From positions 5,704,001-5,768,000 of the forward strand of contig NZ_CP090063.1 in the NCBI RefSeq assembly GCF_021391495.1: a stretch of 64,000 nt of DNA. Direction: 5' to 3'. A model generated the notes under the pieces. The model did not search any database. It was given only the letters and a program-made list of their open reading frames with translations, and had not been told where the DNA came from. The position numbers and the translations under genes are program-made. Shown here one piece after another: positions 35,547 through 42,139 of this stretch (its first letter is position 1; every line of letters starts with the position of its first letter). Origin of the DNA: Amycolatopsis acidiphila (GTDB lineage Bacteria > Actinomycetota > Actinomycetes > Mycobacteriales > Pseudonocardiaceae).

Positions 35547-36299
35547 TCACCCCGTCACCCGGTTCGTCAGCGCATGCGCCTCCTTCAGCAGGAGCGCGCC
35601 CAGCTCCGGCCGCCGGTCGGCGCGGAAGCGCGACTCGACGCCCGTGAGCGTCAGCGCCCAGTCCGGCTCGCCGGAGCGGCCGAAGACCGCCGCTGCCATC
35701 CCCCAGCTGCCTTCCACCACAAGCCCCGGGTTCACCGCGTAGCCGAGCTCGCGGGTCCGGGCGATCCGCTCACGCACCGCGCCGGCCGAATGGGCCGCGC
35801 CCCACCGCGCGGTGAGGTCCACGCGGCCGAGGTACTCGTCCACCTCCCGGTCGGGGAGCATCGCCAGCACGACCAGACCCGCCGAGACGACGCCCAGCGG
35901 GAACCGGGCGCCCTCGTACAGCACGAACGAGCGGATCGGGAAGTCGCCGTCCTCCCGCAGCAGGCACACGGTCTCCGCACCCCGGCGCGCGGAGAAGAAA
36001 GCGCTTTCACCGGTGGCGGCCGCGAGCCGGTGGACGGCGGTCCTGGCTTGCTGGGTCACGTCGTACCGCCGTGCCGCGACCTCGCCCAGCAGGTACAGCT
36101 CCGGCCCGAGGTACCAGCGGCCGCTGCGGCGGTCGCGATCGACGTAACCCTCCTCCGCGAGCCCGACGAGCAGCCGGTGCACGGTCGGCCGGGCGAGCTC
36201 GGTGGCACGCGCGAGGTCCGAGGTCGACGCGCCGTCCTCGTTGACCGTGGACAGCGCCCGCAGCACGGCGCTGACGCGCCCGATCAGGTACCCGGTCAT
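35547..36299 (-). CDS. IclR-family regulator of the adjacent CoA transferase
   Basis: A 250-residue protein. The N-terminal winged helix has VLRALSTVNEDGASTSDLAR and ATELARPTVHRLLVGLAEEG. The effector domain runs from about residue 75 (AARRYDVTQQARTAVHRLAA ... ESAFFSARRGAETVCLLRED ... VVSAGLVVLAMLPD). IclR proteins typically control aromatic or short-chain acid catabolism, and here the divergent neighbours are both subunits of a 3-oxoacid CoA transferase. There is no ribosome site, but TAGGAT ends six bases before ATG 36299, implying a leaderless mRNA. The palindrome at 36312-36328 exactly fills the space upstream of that hexamer. Confidence 0.88.
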   Translation of the reverse strand: MTGYLIGRVSAVLRALSTVNEDGASTSDLARATELARPTVHRLLVGLAEEGYVDRDRRSGRWYLGPELYLLGEVAARRYDVTQQARTAVHRLAAATGESAFFSARRGAETVCLLREDGDFPIRSFVLYEGARFPLGVVSAGLVVLAMLPDREVDEYLGRVDLTARWGAAHSAGAVRERIARTRELGYAVNPGLVVEGSWGMAAAVFGRSGEPDWALTLTGVESRFRADRRPELGALLLKEAHALTNRVTG

Positions 36300-36311
36300 G
36301 CGCCGATCCTA

Positions 36312-36328
36312 CGTTCACTGGATGAACG
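36312..36328. promoter_or_regulatory. IclR operator CGTTCA-N5-TGAACG
   Basis: CGTTCA (36312-36317) and TGAACG (36323-36328) flank CTGGA. It begins one base beyond the TAGGAT hexamer of iclR (36306-36311, minus strand) and spans 17 bases, the normal promoter spacer, so binding would block the iclR promoter. The sequence TCCAGTGAACG at about 36399-36409 repeats one half-site plus spacer in inverse orientation, nearer the CoA transferase genes. Confidence 0.65.
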
Positions 36329-36434
36329 CATCGCTGCGGATCGTTCACCTGCCGAAAGATGCTTTGACGCTGGCCAGCCGATGCGTTCCACTTCCGAGGT
36401 GTCCAGTGAACGAACGCCAGGGAGAGGGGACGCA

Positions 36435-37151
36435 GTGCGCAAGCTGTACGCCGGTGCCACCGATGCGCTGTCCGGGGTACTCGCGGACGGGATCACGATC
36501 GCCGTCGGCGGGTTCGGGTTGAGCGGCAACCCGAACGACCTGATCGAGGCCGTGCGCGACTCGGGGGTGCGCGAGCTGACGATCGTGGCGAACAACATGG
36601 GGGTCGACGGCAAGGGACTCGGCCTGCTGCTGGAGAACCGCCAGGTCCGCAAGGTCATCGCCTCCTACGTGGGCGAGAACAGGCTGTTCGCGCAGCAGTA
36701 CCTCGACGGCGAGCTGGAGGTGGAGTTCGCGCCGCAGGGCACGCTCGCGGAGCGGATGCGCGCCGGCGGTGCCGGGATCCCGGCCTTCTACACCGCGACC
36801 GGCGTCGGCACCCCCGTCGCCGACGGCAAACCCCACGCCGAGTTCGACGGCCGGACCTACCTGCGGGAGCGCGGGATCGTCGCCGACCTCGCCCTGGTGC
36901 ACGCGCACACCGCCGACCGCGCGGGCAACCTCGGCTACCGCCGCACCGCGCGCAACTTCAACCCGCTCGTCGCGACCTGCGGCCGGGTGAGCGTGGTGGA
37001 GACCGAGGTGCTGCTCGACGGGTACGTCGACCCCGACCTGGTCGGCACGCCGGGCGTGTTCGTCGACCGGCTCGTCGTGGCGCGCGAGCGGGTCAAGGAG
37101 ATCGAGAAGCGCACGGTGCGGCCGCGGGCGCTCGCCGGATCGGAGGCGTGA
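36435..37151 (+). CDS. scoA: 3-oxoacid CoA-transferase subunit A
   Basis: A 238-residue subunit opening [20 protein letters not shown], with [21 protein letters not shown], the CoA-binding region [19 protein letters not shown] and [16 protein letters not shown]. The A/B pair moves CoA from succinyl-CoA to a 3-oxoacid such as acetoacetate (SCOT) or 3-oxoadipate (PcaIJ); sequence alone does not decide. GTG 36435 follows GGGAGAGGGG. It precedes subunit B by one base and is divergent from an IclR regulator. Because a 3-hydroxybutyrate pathway is present at 56-63 kb, acetoacetate is an attractive substrate, which is inference. Confidence 0.88.
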
Positions 37152-37152
37152 G

Positions 37153-37794
37153 ATGGGCTGGACGCGGGACGAGATGGCGGCGCGCGCGGCAGGCGAACTG
37201 TCCGACGGCGACTACGTCAACCTCGGCATCGGCATCCCGACGCTGGTGGCGAACCACATCCCCGAAGGCGTCGGGGTGACGTTGCAGAGCGAGAACGGGA
37301 TCCTCGGGATGGGCCCGTTCCCGTTCGAGGGCGCGGAGGACGCCGACCTCATCAACGCGGGCAAGCAGACCGTGACGGTGGTCCCCGGCGCGAGCTTCTT
37401 CGACTCGGCCACCTCGTTCGCGATGATCCGCGGCGGGCACATAGATCTCGCGGTCCTGGGCGCGCTGCAGGTCGCGGCGAACGGCGATCTGGCGAACTGG
37501 ACCGTCCCCGGTGCGCTCGTCAAGGGCATGGGCGGTGCGATGGACCTGGTCGCGGGCACCAAGCGGATCGTGGTGCTCACCGACCACGTCGCGAAGGACG
37601 GGCGGCCGAAGATCGTCGAGAAGTGCACGCTGCCGCTGACGGGCGCACGCGTGGTGGACCGGGTCATCACCGACCTCGCCGTCCTCGACGTGACCCCGGA
37701 CGGCCTGGTGCTGGTCGAAACCGCGCCCGGGGTGGCCGTCGAGGAGGTCCGGGCGAAGACGGGGGCGGCGGTCCGCGTGCCGGTGGCGCATTGA
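37153..37794 (+). CDS. scoB: 3-oxoacid CoA-transferase subunit B
   Basis: A 213-residue subunit. The catalytic Glu lies in [14 protein letters not shown], and [37 protein letters not shown] and [18 protein letters not shown] are all in place. This subunit carries the Glu that forms the covalent CoA thioester in transfer between succinyl-CoA and a 3-oxoacid. Its ATG follows the stop of subunit A after one base, so the heterodimer is made from one mRNA. The length is usual for the bacterial SCOT/PcaJ class. Confidence 0.9.
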
Positions 37795-38577: not shown

Positions 38578-40209
38578 GTGCCCCCTGGTTTGACTGATTC
38601 CGAGCGCCTTGCTCGTCCATCCCCGGTGCCGACCGACCCGGGGTGGGACGGAGTGCCCTGTCCGGCCGTCCAGGTGGAACCCGGCGGTGTGGTGCGCGCG
38701 GTCAACCAGTCCGCGCAGCGGCTCTTCCCCGCCGTCCGTACCGGTGCGGAACTGGGTGAGTGCGCGCCGTCCTGGCTGGCCGAAGCGAACCGCGACCCCG
38801 GCGCGCACGCCGGCGGCTGGGTGGACGAGCGCAGCTTCGAGGCGCACGCCGTCCGCCACGACGACGACTCGACCACCTGGTGGCTGGTCGAGGACACCGG
38901 TACGCAGCGGGCCCGCGAGGCGCTGCGGCTCGAACGCGCCCGCGCCGAGTTCCTCACCGAGGCGTGCACGGCACTGCTCGGGTCGCTCAACCTCGAGCGG
39001 TGCATGGAGGTCGCCGCGGAGCGGGCCGCCGCCCACCTCGCCGACGCCGCGCTGGTGATCGCGCCCGGTACCCGGCGCCGGTACCCCGTCGTGCGCTGCT
39101 CGCGCGGGGAGCGCCCGGTGCACGCCCAGCTGGAGATCGACCCCGACGAGATACCCGGTCTCGGCGAGGCACTGCAGGGCTTCCCGCCCGTGCCGTCCCG
39201 CTGGATCGACCCGGCCACCGCCCCGGACTGGCTCTTGCCCGAGGGGTTCGGCGAGGTCGGCGGCATCGTGGTGACGCCGCTTCCGGGGCACGGCATGCCG
39301 GCGGGCGCGCTGATCCTGCTCCGCCGCGTCCGGCAGCCCGCGTTCAGCGACGACGAGGAGATCTTCGCCCGCCTGTTCGCCTCCCGCTCGGGCGCGGCGA
39401 TGTCGGCGGCACGCGTGTTCGCCCAGCAGGCCTCGATCACCGAGACGCTCATGCGCGACCTGCTGCCCCCGGTCCTGCACCAGGTGGCGGGCGTGGAGTT
39501 CGCGGGCGCCTACCGGCCCTCGCAGGACAGCGAGCACGTCGGCGGCGACTTCTACGACGTGCACCCCGGCGTGGACGGCGAGTCGCTCGCGGTGCTCGGC
39601 GACGTGTGCGGCAAGGGACTCGAAGCCGCCGTGCTGACCGGCAAGATCCGCAACACGCTGCAGGCACTGCTGCCGATGGCCGACGACCACAAGCGGATGC
39701 TCGAACTGCTCAACGGCTCGCTGGTCAACTCGCACGACACCCGGTTCGTCACGCTCGTGCTGGCGTCGGCGGCGCGGCACGGCGGCGGGGTCCGGCTGCG
39801 GCTGACCTCCGCCGGTCACCTGCCACCGCTGATCGTGCGGGCCAACGGGCACGTCGAGGAGGCCGAGACGGCCGGGACCCTGGTCGGCGTGCTGCCGCAG
39901 ATCCAGGCGAGCACCGCGGAGGTCACCCTCGCCCCCGGCGAGACGTGCCTGCTCTACACCGACGGCATCACCGAAGCCCGCGGCGGCCCGCTCGGGGACG
40001 GGATGTACGGCGAGGAGCGGCTGCGCCGCGCGCTGGCCGAGTGCTGCGGCATGCCGGCCGAGGCGGTCGTCGAGCGCGTGCAGATGCTCGCCTCGCAATG
40101 GGTCGGCCGCAACTCCCACGACGACATGGCCGTGCTCGCGATCACCGCGCCGCGCGGGCAGCACCTGACCGCGGTGGGCGGTCACGGACGAGGCAGGTAC
40201 ACCGCATGA
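38578..40209 (+). CDS. PP2C-type Ser/Thr phosphatase with sensory N-terminus (RsbU/SpoIIE family)
   Basis: A protein of about 543 residues. An N-terminal PAS-like segment (VPCPAVQVEPGGVVRAVNQS) is followed by a helical linker (ARAEFLTEACTALLGSLNLE), a GAF-like domain (about 130-290) and the PP2C phosphatase (about 305-535), with metal Asp residues in VGGDFYDV, LAVLGDVCGKGLEAA, LLYTDGITEARGG and NSHDDMAVLAI. Such RsbU-type enzymes dephosphorylate STAS anti-anti-sigma proteins. The start is uncertain: GTG 38578 is chosen, and TTG 38530 with GGTGG upstream is possible. It overlaps the B12-binding gene (ATGA), which overlaps a STAS gene. Confidence 0.85.
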   Translation: MPPGLTDSERLARPSPVPTDPGWDGVPCPAVQVEPGGVVRAVNQSAQRLFPAVRTGAELGECAPSWLAEANRDPGAHAGGWVDERSFEAHAVRHDDDSTTWWLVEDTGTQRAREALRLERARAEFLTEACTALLGSLNLERCMEVAAERAAAHLADAALVIAPGTRRRYPVVRCSRGERPVHAQLEIDPDEIPGLGEALQGFPPVPSRWIDPATAPDWLLPEGFGEVGGIVVTPLPGHGMPAGALILLRRVRQPAFSDDEEIFARLFASRSGAAMSAARVFAQQASITETLMRDLLPPVLHQVAGVEFAGAYRPSQDSEHVGGDFYDVHPGVDGESLAVLGDVCGKGLEAAVLTGKIRNTLQALLPMADDHKRMLELLNGSLVNSHDTRFVTLVLASAARHGGGVRLRLTSAGHLPPLIVRANGHVEEAETAGTLVGVLPQIQASTAEVTLAPGETCLLYTDGITEARGGPLGDGMYGEERLRRALAECCGMPAEAVVERVQMLASQWVGRNSHDDMAVLAITAPRGQHLTAVGGHGRGRYTA

Positions 40210-41291
40210 GCCCGGCTGCCCGCCTGAGTCCGGCCGGGGTCCGGGTGCACGCCGAACGACTGTGGGACGCGGTCACCACCGGCAACGAGTACACCGCGAG
40301 CGGGATCGTGCTGACCGCACTCGACGAAGGCCTCCCGGCCGAGAGCGTCCTGCTGGACGTGATCGGCGTGGTGCAACGGAAAATCGGCGAGGAGTGGGCG
40401 GCGAACCGGCTGAGCGTGGCGCAGGAACACGTCGCGACGGCGATCAACGACCGCGCCGTCGCGACGCTCGTGCACACCGTGCGGCCGCCCGAGCCGCGCC
40501 GGGGCCGGGTCACCGTGGCCTGCGTGGCCGGGGAATGGCACGCGCTGCCCGCACGGCTGCTCGCGGAAGTGTTGCGGCTGCGGGGTTTCCGCGTGGACTA
40601 CCTGGGCGCGCAGGTGCCGTCGCCGCACCTGATCACGCATCTGCACCGCACCGGGCCGGACGCGGTCGCGCTGTCCAGCTCGATCCCGACCCGGCTGCCC
40701 ACCGCGCACGCGACGATCACGGCCTGCCAGGCGGCGGGTGTCCCGGTGATCGCGGGCGGCGCCGCGTTCGGGCCCGGCGGCCGGTACGCGAAACTGCTGG
40801 GCGCCGACGCGTGGGGCCCGGACGCGCGCGCGGCGGCGGACCGGCTCGAGGATTCGCTGCCCCGCCCGCAGGCGGGTCACCAGCCGATCGACGACCTGCC
40901 GCACCTGGCCGACCAGGAGTACACGATGATCGTGCGGACGGCGCCGCAGCTGGTCGAGGCGGTGTACGCCGGGCTGGAGGAGCGTGTCCCGGCGATGCGG
41001 GACTACACCGAGCAGCAGCGGCAGTACACCGCGGAGGATCTCGCGCACATCGTCGAGTTCCTCGCGACGTCGCTCTACATCGGCGACGACGAGCTGTTCA
41101 CCGATTTCCTCGGCTGGACGGCGCAGATCCTCACCGCGCGCGGCGTACCCGCCCGCTCGCTGCGACCCGCGCTCGAACTGCTCGGCGGCGAGCTGCGCGA
41201 CTTCCCGCGGGCCGCGCGCCTGCTGGAACTCGCCGGCGACCACCTCGGCGGCGTCCTCGGCCCTGTCCCCGACACCGGAAAAACCGCATGA
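40206..41291 (+). CDS. Cobalamin-binding CarH/LitR-like sensor without a DNA-binding domain
   Basis: A 361-residue protein in three parts. Residues 10-95 are the four-helix cobalamin cap, with W64 and E74-H75 in EEWAANRLSVAQEHVATA. This is the Wx9EH motif that marks B12 photoreceptors. Residues 100-215 are the Rossmann B12 domain: GEWHALPARLL supplies His112 as lower ligand in the ExH form of CarH, then RGFRVDYLGAQVP. Residues 230-350 are an all-helical domain (YTAEDLAHIVEFLATSLYIG, then FLGWTAQILTARGVP) resembling RsbR-type N-terminal modules. The MerR domain of CarH is absent. It overlaps genes for a PP2C phosphatase and a STAS protein, so output is probably through partner switching. Light sensing is inferred. 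Confidence 0.85.
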   Translation: MSPAARLSPAGVRVHAERLWDAVTTGNEYTASGIVLTALDEGLPAESVLLDVIGVVQRKIGEEWAANRLSVAQEHVATAINDRAVATLVHTVRPPEPRRGRVTVACVAGEWHALPARLLAEVLRLRGFRVDYLGAQVPSPHLITHLHRTGPDAVALSSSIPTRLPTAHATITACQAAGVPVIAGGAAFGPGGRYAKLLGADAWGPDARAAADRLEDSLPRPQAGHQPIDDLPHLADQEYTMIVRTAPQLVEAVYAGLEERVPAMRDYTEQQRQYTAEDLAHIVEFLATSLYIGDDELFTDFLGWTAQILTARGVPARSLRPALELLGGELRDFPRAARLLELAGDHLGGVLGPVPDTGKTA

Positions 41292-41650
41292 GCACACCTC
41301 GTCCGCTGAACTGCACCTGGGCGATGACGGACCCGGCCACGGGCCGCATCACGATCGACGGCGACCTCGACTACGACAACGCGGACCAGCTGTTGTACGA
41401 GGTGACGGAGCGGCTGAGCGCCGGTCCGGGGCTGAAGAAGCTGCACCTGGACTGCGCTGCCCTCACCTTCTGCGACTCCTACGGGCTCTCCACGCTGCTG
41501 TCGGTGCACCGCCGCCTCGGCGAGGCCGGTGCGGTGCTGCACCTGGAGAACCTGCCGGCCGGCCTGACACGGCTGCTGCGGCTGACGAACACCCTGGCGT
41601 ACTTCACCGGCCCGGCGGCAGTGGCCCAGGAGCGCTCGGACCCCTCCTAA
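41288..41650 (+). CDS. STAS-domain anti-anti-sigma factor
   Basis: A 120-residue STAS protein: GRITIDGDLDYDNADQLLYE, then LKKLHLDCAALTFCDSYGLS. Ser64 in FCDSYGLS sits where RsbV and SpoIIAA are phosphorylated by an anti-sigma kinase. The unphosphorylated form normally traps the anti-sigma factor and frees the sigma factor. Its ATG overlaps the stop of the cobalamin protein by four bases and completes the three-gene operon with the PP2C phosphatase. No RsbW-like kinase gene is in the window. The 3' end meets the convergent MarR remnant. Confidence 0.88.
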   Translation: MSTPRPLNCTWAMTDPATGRITIDGDLDYDNADQLLYEVTERLSAGPGLKKLHLDCAALTFCDSYGLSTLLSVHRRLGEAGAVLHLENLPAGLTRLLRLTNTLAYFTGPAAVAQERSDPS

Positions 41651-42095
41651 CGGGATCCGCGCTTGGGCCGGGGGCGCGCCGACCGGGGCGGCGCCTGCCG
41701 TAGCCGGTCCCGCACCGGGCCGAGCACCCGTTGCAGCGTGGCCAGATCCGCGGCCGGCATCCCGTCGAACACCAGGCGCTTGACGAGCTCCACATGTCCG
41801 GGCATCACCCGGTGCAGCAACTCACGCCCCTCGGCGGTCAGCCGGACGACCGTGCTGCGCTCGTCGTCTTCGCGGGGGCGCGCGCGATGAGACCGCGGTG
41901 TTCGAGCTGCCCGGCCTGATAGGTGAAACCGCTGCGGCTGTAGACGATCCGGTCGGCGATGTCGGTCATCCGCCGGCCCTCGCCCGGGGTGTCCCCGAGG
42001 ACGACCAGGATCTGGAACTGGATCGGGCTGAGGTCGCCGTCGTCGCGCAGCTCCTGGGCCACGGCCTGCTGCAACAGGCTGCCGACCTCCGTCAT
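41647..42095 (-). pseudogene. MarR-family regulator, frameshifted
   Basis: Residues from ATG 42095 read as MarR through LSPIQFQILVVLGDTPGEGR, RIVYSRSGFTYQAGQLEHRG and LIARAP. Near 41875-41885 a run of C loses one base: the frame then ends quickly, while the next frame supplies the natural wing and tail REDDERSTVVRLTAEGRELL, HRVMPGHVELVKRL and so on to a stop at 41647. A single inserted C would restore about 150 residues. No ribosome site or leaderless hexamer precedes ATG 42095; in-frame sequence continues upstream (GADQLAAYFT) without a start codon. It is divergent from a decayed quinone reductase. Confidence 0.7.
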
Positions 42096-42139
42096 CGTGA
42101 AGTACGCGGCGAGCTGATCCGCGCCGAGGCCTGAAGGCA

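What the first reader, a model, noticed from the sequence alone, without database searches (positions are those of the whole stretch)
38578..41650. A B12 (possibly light) sensor built into a partner-switching operon
Three genes overlap by ATGA: an RsbU-type PP2C phosphatase, a cobalamin-binding protein and a STAS anti-anti-sigma protein. The B12 protein has the Wx9EH motif (W64, E74-H75) and the ExH lower-ligand motif (H112) of CarH/LitR photoreceptors. Instead of a MerR DNA-binding domain it carries an extra helical domain at its C-terminus. In CarH the Wx9EH residues shield adenosylcobalamin and light breaks the Co-C bond. Here the same sensor seems to feed a phosphatase/STAS switch, so light or B12 status would set the activity of an alternative sigma factor. 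I know of no characterised system of exactly this composition.
Basis: partly seen in the sequence, partly recalled or inferred. Interest (0 to 1): 0.88.

Follow-up and report, generated by a model that had tools for sequence, protein, structure and literature searches.

The report
Photocobilin light sensor with partner-switch phosphatase
A soil actinomycete carries a vitamin-B12-and-bile-pigment light sensor of a kind described in 2024, encoded in one run of genes with a phosphatase and a switch protein of the type that turns on stress-response gene programmes, so it is probably a light-operated gene switch whose wiring can now be tested.

Summary
Confirmed: three + strand genes joined by ATGA overlaps encode an RsbU/SpoIIE-type PP2C phosphatase, a B12 protein with W64, E74-H75 and H112, and a STAS protein. 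The B12 protein is a photocobilin, a family described in 2024 (PMC10979010): 48% identical to SasPcob, and its model overlays that crystal structure (Foldseek TMt 0.94). The "extra helical domain" is the biliverdin-binding globin; both named biliverdin contacts are kept (D278, W304). That paper already suggested, from a STRING network, that SasPcob interacts with STAS and SpoIIE/PP2C proteins. Added here: the phosphatase lies directly upstream in 70 of 71 close relatives, with a 4-base stop/start overlap in 64 of 70. The light-sensor residues are fixed in 72 of 72 and 99 of 99 rows. An RsbW-like kinase gene lies near 34 of 71. In two Streptomyces-family loci the run continues through a kinase to a SigB/F/G sigma gene. 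The window has no kinase or sigma gene nearby. Best reading: light alters the photocobilin, which regulates the phosphatase and so a sigma factor; contact and direction are untested.

The parts
38578..40209 (+). RsbU/SpoIIE-type PP2C (PPM) phosphatase; model read as PAS - helix - GAF - long helix - PP2C. Start GTG 38578 or ATG 38443
   Evidence: Pfam SpoIIE 145.3 bits; AF2 model, mean pLDDT 86.2, pTM 0.53; Foldseek top hits PP2C domains incl. 3ke6, RssB, SpoIIE; phytochrome chains from rank 28 on
40206..41291 (+). Photocobilin: four-helix B12 cap (16-88), Rossmann B12 domain (100-210), C-terminal globin (about 237-351)
   Evidence: Pfam; 8J2W/8J2X E 5e-83 over residues 16-340; AF2 pLDDT 92.2, pTM 0.88; Foldseek 8j2w_A TMt 0.94
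40395..40430 (+). Codons of W64 to H75 (Wx9EH, adenosyl pocket and dimer interface)
   Evidence: W64, E74, H75 72/72 and 99/99 identical; counterparts of Sas W61, E71, H72
40533..40541 (+). Codons of E110-W111-H112 (lower cobalt ligand motif)
   Evidence: H112 72/72 and 99/99; counterpart of Sas H108
41037..41039 (+). Codon of D278, counterpart of the biliverdin ligand Asp270 of SasPcob
   Evidence: 72/72 in the close set; 67/81 in wider PP2C-linked rows
41115..41117 (+). Codon of W304, counterpart of Trp296 of SasPcob
   Evidence: 72/72; 98/99 in the wide set
41288..41650 (+). STAS anti-anti-sigma-type protein; Ser64 in the phospho-site position (position recalled from SpoIIAA)
   Evidence: Pfam STAS_2 59 bits; Ser at this column in 48 of 52 downstream STAS rows, window included
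40206..40209 (+). ATGA stop/start overlap, PP2C to photocobilin
   Evidence: In-frame overlap in 64 of 70 loci with an adjacent PP2C: ATGA 48, GTGA 16
41288..41291 (+). ATGA stop/start overlap, photocobilin to STAS
   Evidence: sequence

Best explanation
It is a stand-alone photocobilin encoded with, and probably bound to, its effector phosphatase. In the dark it should hold adenosylcobalamin under W64 and E74-H75 and biliverdin in the globin pocket (D278, W304). Green light, or red light through biliverdin, would break the Co-C bond and change its dimer state. The changed photocobilin would set the activity of the PAS-GAF-PP2C phosphatase, probably through the long helix in front of the PP2C domain, as in RsbU. 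The phosphatase would dephosphorylate Ser64 of the STAS protein; the free STAS protein would then capture an RsbW-type kinase encoded elsewhere in this genome and release a SigB/F/G-type sigma factor. Shown here: family membership by sequence and model, conserved residues, conserved coupled gene order, kinase and sigma genes near some relatives' operons. Inferred: chromophore binding in this protein, contact with the phosphatase, the sign (I favour light = phosphatase on, about 65:35, from the light-activated DGC photocobilin), and the identity of kinase and sigma factor.
For: Sequence and fold match to SasPcob. Light and biliverdin residues 72/72, although only 8.3% of the 96 globin columns (245-340) are invariant. 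PP2C adjacent 70/71, 34/39, 7/20 and 40/40 in four partly overlapping sets; 4-base overlap 64/70. STAS downstream 51/71. HATPase kinase within 4.5 kb in 34/71, 16 of them on the same strand just upstream of PP2C. L052 and L295 run PP2C-Pcob-STAS-...-kinase-...-sigma on one strand; sigma = TIGR02980 at 301, 283 and, in L181, 255 bits, cut-off 234.35. One heme oxygenase and a cobalamin adenosyltransferase in the window's genome. Photochemistry and light-activated output shown for the family (PMC10979010). Linker-driven phosphatase dimerisation shown for RsbU (PMC12143880, abstract and passages).
Against: No kinase or sigma gene near the operon in the window's genome: the nearest HATPase_c_2 match is about 27 kb away, and the closest kin of the Amycolatopsis kinase is 39% identical. 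SasPcob itself, the characterised relative, has no adjacent PP2C (L160). Photocobilins outside the class lack the phosphatase (0 of 13). L065 lacks an adjacent PP2C. A sigma gene within 6 kb occurs in 5 of 170 loci in any orientation and 4 on the same strand, in total little above what chance could give; two of the four are from one genus, and their photocobilins (L178, L181) have Val in place of D278, so they are not close copies of this system. The downstream STAS is missing in 20 of 71. No binding or activity data exist for this protein.
Confidence: 0.66

Rival explanations
1. The protein senses AdoCbl (B12 status) rather than light: apo and AdoCbl-bound forms differ in how they act on the phosphatase, and photolysis is incidental.
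For: In AbDPcob, AdoCbl binding alone lowered cyclase activity relative to apo (PMC10979010). The window's genome has a cobalamin adenosyltransferase and other corrinoid-binding proteins.
Against: W64, E74 and H75, which hold the adenosyl group and relay its loss, are fixed in 72/72 and 99/99 rows, as are the biliverdin contacts in the close set; a pure B12-level sensor would have no need of a biliverdin pocket.
Confidence: 0.15
2. The photocobilin acts on the STAS protein or on a kinase, not on the phosphatase; the phosphatase senses its own signal through PAS-GAF.
For: The phosphatase model has its own PAS-like and GAF-like domains. SasPcob sits next to a STAS match without PP2C.
Against: The PP2C is a more constant neighbour than the STAS (70/71 against 51/71), and it is the PP2C whose stop codon overlaps the photocobilin start (64/70).
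Confidence: 0.12
3. The output is not a sigma factor but another STAS/kinase target.
For: Same-strand sigma genes are near the operon in only 4 of 170 loci. The window's genome has many HATPase_c_2 and STAS places and no close kin of the Amycolatopsis kinase.
Against: In L052 and L295 the operon runs on one strand into a SigB/F/G gene, and in L178/L181 it sits beside one, with an RsbW-like gene overlapping the sigma start in L181.
Confidence: 0.25

Closest known systems
SasPcob, stand-alone photocobilin of Saccharothrix syringae (PDB 8J2W/8J2X; PMC10979010)
   Same: Domain order, fold (TMt 0.94), W/EH/H motifs, biliverdin Asp and Trp; 48% identity
   Different: The gene that matches SasPcob at 100% (genome G076, so presumably S. 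syringae) has no PP2C neighbour; the same genome has a second photocobilin, 72% identical to ours, in a PP2C-Pcob-STAS run
AbDPcob, photocobilin-diguanylate cyclase (8J2Y; PMC10979010)
   Same: Same photocobilin core; shows that such a core can switch an enzyme with light
   Different: Enzyme fused in cis and making c-di-GMP; Asp270 replaced by His; 36% identity
CarH/LitR
   Same: B12 cap and Rossmann domains with Wx9EH and lower-ligand His
   Different: No MerR DNA-binding domain here; CarH model NF052513 gives 56.4 bits against a cut-off of 400
RsbU/RsbP/SpoIIE partner switching, incl. the RsbU-RsbW protein 3ke6 and the PAS/GAF phosphatase OsaC named in PMC12143880
   Same: PP2C domain, STAS substrate candidate with the serine, long helix before PP2C
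   Different: Input by a separate photocobilin; no kinase or sigma gene at the window locus
LOV-STAS protein YtvA in the Bacillus stressosome (recalled)
   Same: Light input to a partner switch
   Different: Flavin LOV domain and a stressosome, not a B12/bilin sensor next to a phosphatase

Membership tests
Photocobilin | B12-binding domain (four-helix cap plus Rossmann) with W-x-EH and E/DxH motifs | tested here: met
   Pfam PF02607, PF02310; W64, E74, H75, E110xH112
Photocobilin | C-terminal globin-like bilin domain | tested here: met
   AF2 pLDDT 92.2; Foldseek 8j2w_A TMt 0.94 over 340 columns
Photocobilin | Biliverdin pocket residues Asp270 and Trp296 of SasPcob | tested here: met
   D278 and W304
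Photocobilin | Binds AdoCbl and biliverdin; light cleaves Co-C and changes oligomer state | not testable with these tools
   Needs purified protein
CarH/LitR | MerR-type DNA-binding domain | tested here: not met
   No such Pfam hit; CarH equivalog 56.4 bits against 400
RsbU/SpoIIE-type PPM phosphatase | SpoIIE/PP2C domain with the Asp motifs (motif roles recalled) | tested here: met
   PF07228 145.3 bits; D324, D342, D462, D515, D516 invariant in 43 rows
RsbU sensu stricto | N-terminal RsbT-binding four-helix domain | tested here: not met
   No such Pfam hit; model shows PAS-like and GAF-like domains
Anti-anti-sigma STAS protein | STAS domain with phosphorylatable Ser (SpoIIAA position, recalled) | tested here: met
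   STAS_2 59 bits; S64, Ser in 48/52. TIGR00377 gives 43.5 bits, under its cut-off of 53.45
Complete partner-switching module | RsbW-type kinase gene at the locus | tested here: not met
   Nearest HATPase_c_2 match about 27 kb away; none within 4.5 kb by the kinase profiles, which ring in 34/71 relatives
Complete partner-switching module | SigB/F/G sigma factor gene at the locus | tested here: not met
   Two over the TIGR02980 cut-off in the genome, at 230535 and 2353195, far from the operon; same-strand near it in L052, L295, L178, L181

The most novel reading that the evidence does not exclude
A B12-plus-bilin photoreceptor that acts in trans: a translationally coupled photocobilin-phosphatase complex forms the input of a full light-to-sigma-factor pathway, spread through Streptomyces, Amycolatopsis and relatives, and would be a common way for non-photosynthetic actinomycetes to turn green and red light into a general-stress or developmental programme.
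Probability: 0.53. Interest if true: 0.75.

Novelty: new member of a known kind. Interest (0 to 1): 0.52.

Why it matters
Photocobilins are described in vitro, but I found no study that establishes a natural output pathway for the stand-alone type. A conserved, translationally coupled phosphatase, and a few loci that carry everything from sensor to sigma factor, make that output testable in a reconstituted system. Photocobilin genes are common: 154 of 390 genomes of the window's family at E 1e-20 and 148 of 394 of the Streptomyces family at E 1e-40.

Tried and rejected
CarH-like regulator: rejected (no MerR). Second photocobilin or CarH in the window's genome: none seen; of the nine PF02310 places one is this gene, seven others were read by eye from the domain stretch as mutase-, MetH- or other corrinoid-type, and the weakest was not read. 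The SasPcob search gave one match in this genome. Orthologue of the Amycolatopsis kinase in the window's genome: none close. SigB/F-like promoter pattern (recalled consensus) upstream of the operon: two matches in the window, neither in front of it. A sigma search with antisense queries (part) was repeated with the right strand. An all-against-all ORF clustering timed out and was replaced by a filtered one. A tally with competition between families undercounted kinases and was replaced. Numbering: a first residue map missed a 6-residue offset and was redone. Phosphatase-photocobilin fusions: the database query could not be made; in L041 the PP2C frame runs on over the photocobilin gene, which lies in another frame, so it is an apparent frame shift near the PP2C end, not a fusion. 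No complex was modelled. The careful tree was not finished; only the quick one was used.
Full report
WHAT IS THERE. The three genes are present as described, on the + strand, with ATGA overlaps at both junctions. Pfam places all three well above curated cut-offs. The window lies in a single-contig 8.18 Mb genome at C1:5704001-5768000. The closest named photocobilin loci are from Amycolatopsis. The start of the phosphatase gene (GTG 38578 or ATG 38443) is not settled.

WHAT THE B12 PROTEIN IS. The best solved structures are SasPcob, 8J2W and 8J2X, E 5e-83 over residues 16-340. An AlphaFold2 model from 39 sequences (pLDDT 92.2, pTM 0.88) matches 8j2w_A with TMt 0.94; next come 8J2Y, CtMerR, methionine synthase and CarH chains. 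The paper on these proteins (PMC10979010; I read the outline, parts 1-3 of 8 of the text, section 9 and passages; no supplement) calls them photocobilins: AdoCbl plus biliverdin, a C-terminal globin, green light acting directly and red light through biliverdin, a monomeric light state in SasPcob, and more than ten-fold light activation of a fused diguanylate cyclase. After correction for a 6-residue numbering offset, the residues it names map to W64, E74, H75, H112, H141, D278 and W304. In 72 rows (71 loci and the window) W64, E74, H75, H112, D278 and W304 are identical in all, and H141 in 71; 8.3% of the 96 globin columns (245-340) are invariant. In a wider set of 99 rows (81 with and 18 without an adjacent phosphatase), W64, E74, H75 and H112 are identical in 99 of 99, W304 in 98, and D278 in 67 of 81 and 13 of 18. 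These rows were chosen by similarity to photocobilins, so they test conservation within the family only.

THE PHOSPHATASE. An AlphaFold2 model from 43 sequences (pLDDT 86.2, pTM 0.53, so domain placement is unsure) shows a PAS-like domain (about 21-106), a helix, a GAF-like domain (139-250), a long helix (258-294) and PP2C (306-523). Foldseek ranks PP2C domains first (3pu9, 3ke6, SiaA, RssB, SpoIIE); phytochrome chains appear from rank 28 on. PAS and GAF are my reading of the model and of that overlap; Pfam found neither. The Asp motif columns are invariant in 43 rows. RsbU is activated when its partner orders a helical linker so that the phosphatase domains dimerise, and the authors extend this by prediction to PAS- and GAF-bearing phosphatases such as OsaC (PMC12143880, abstract and passages). 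The long helix here would fit that scheme; this is inference.

CONSERVED GENE ORDER. In 71 genome-contig loci fetched with the window protein (close relatives, 51-77% identical), the PP2C is directly upstream on the same strand in 70. The exception is L065; in L076 only the end of the gene was matched. An ATG or GTG in the photocobilin frame overlaps the PP2C stop by exactly 4 bases in 64 of 70 (48 ATGA, 16 GTGA), and 4 more have a start within 25 bases. The start was taken as the one nearest the stop, which favours an overlap, but A makes up only 3.7% of third positions in these PP2C genes, so 48 ATGA is far above chance. A STAS gene follows within 400 bases in 51 of 71, with Ser at the S64 column in 48 of 52 rows, window included. 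Across four sets PP2C is adjacent in 70/71, 34/39, 7/20 and 40/40. In the phylum set the 7 loci from the same class or order all have the phosphatase and none of the 13 from other classes do. On a quick tree of 79 photocobilins the adjacency label needs 5 changes against 17.2 in shuffles, 0 of 500 as low. The window's genome has 9 SpoIIE-domain places in 8.18 Mb, so adjacency by chance would be rare.

KINASE AND SIGMA FACTOR. A HATPase gene lies within 4.5 kb in 34 of 71 loci: 16 on the same strand just upstream of PP2C and 9 divergent upstream. In the other three sets it is 8/39, 1/20 and 18/40. The kinase, STAS and PP2C profiles were built from genes of these same loci, so their scores are not independent; 30 of the 34 score at least 100 bits and four (L053, L064, L067, L076) less. 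Pfam confirms HATPase_c_2 for the examples that I sent: L009, L052, L178 and L181. The window's genome holds 28 HATPase_c_2 places over the cut-off in 8.18 Mb, which would put one within such a stretch in roughly 3-4% of loci, so a rate near one half is far above background. A SigB/F/G gene within 6 kb occurs in 5 of 170 loci, 4 on the same strand. L052 (Streptomyces diastatochromogenes) runs PP2C, photocobilin, STAS, kinase, STAS, sigma. L295 (a genome of the Streptomyces family) runs PP2C, photocobilin, STAS, STAS, kinase, kinase, sigma. L178 and L181, from one genus, have sigma, an opposite-strand WhiB-like gene (named by eye), STAS, kinase, PP2C, photocobilin, STAS; in L181 an RsbW-like gene overlaps the sigma start. 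With about ten such sigma genes per streptomycete genome (recalled), one to three any-orientation neighbours within 6 kb could be expected by chance over 170 loci, so the bare count says little; the L052 and L295 arrangement, same strand within about 2 kb behind a kinase, is much less likely by chance (my rough arithmetic: about 0.1 expected, 2 seen; the two sigma factors are 58% identical, and may go back to one event). I treat it as support, not proof. In the window's genome neither kinase nor sigma lies by the operon; two SigB/F/G genes over the cut-off are elsewhere, and a STAS-HATPase-HATPase cluster at about C1:4558600-4560000 holds the best, but only 39% identical, kin of the Amycolatopsis kinase.

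CHROMOPHORE SUPPLY. The genome has one heme oxygenase (175 bits) and a cobalamin adenosyltransferase (209 bits), so both chromophores are plausible.

HOW KNOWN IS IT. The family is known. PMC10979010 section 9 says that in Saccharothrix SasPcob potentially interacts with STAS, SpoIIE and PP2C-like proteins, from a STRING analysis, and suggests a role in the cell stress response. The photoglobin paper of 2022 (PMC8717448, cited in PMC11796333 and PMC10151467) is not held, so I cannot say what operon data it gives; this could lower the novelty further. PMC10151467 (passages) places photoglobins with bilin-binding globins and uses the RsbR globin as outgroup, which ties the sensor fold to another partner-switch sensor. 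My searches of the held library listed no experimental study of a photocobilin acting on a phosphatase or sigma factor; I read four papers in part (PMC10979010, PMC11796333, PMC10151467, PMC12143880) and the rest only as listings. A point not in the parts that I read: the gene matching the crystallised SasPcob has no PP2C neighbour, while the operon-type orthologue is a second gene in the same genome.

VERDICT. A sound observation with a largely right idea about function, but the sensor belongs to a published family and the link to partner switching was already proposed. The new content is the strength and form of the coupling, the fixed light residues across it, and the few loci that carry the whole pathway.

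Noticed in passing
L171, L176, L177, L179, L180 and L173, L174, L175, L178, L181: In a divergent clade of phosphatase-linked photocobilins the biliverdin Asp column holds Cys or Val instead of Asp (Ala or Thr in L242, L244, L245); these may bind bilin differently, covalently or not at all.
   Followed up: partly
L160 and L161 (genome G076, presumably S. syringae): Two photocobilins in one genome: the one matching crystallised SasPcob, without PP2C, and a PP2C-Pcob-STAS copy 72% identical to the window's.
   Followed up: yes
window about 41650-42130, - strand: MarR-like regulator gene (read by eye) that reads in two frames, an apparent frame shift near 41880, next to the STAS gene; not mended.
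   Followed up: partly
G000:C1:5773012-5776025, about 5 kb beyond the window end: A minus-strand open frame of 1386 aa with one PP2C and two HATPase matches, followed by a STAS match in another frame: a second partner-switch cluster about 27 kb from the operon.
   Followed up: no
loci such as L017, L065, L181, L295: MarR-type regulators and a second phosphatase-like protein (both named by eye) recur near photocobilin operons.
   Followed up: partly
window 35550-37794: IclR-type regulator and two CoA-transferase subunit genes upstream of the operon.
   Followed up: no
L162, L163, L164: SasPcob-type photocobilins with PP2C-Pcob-STAS-kinase in one run.
   Followed up: partly
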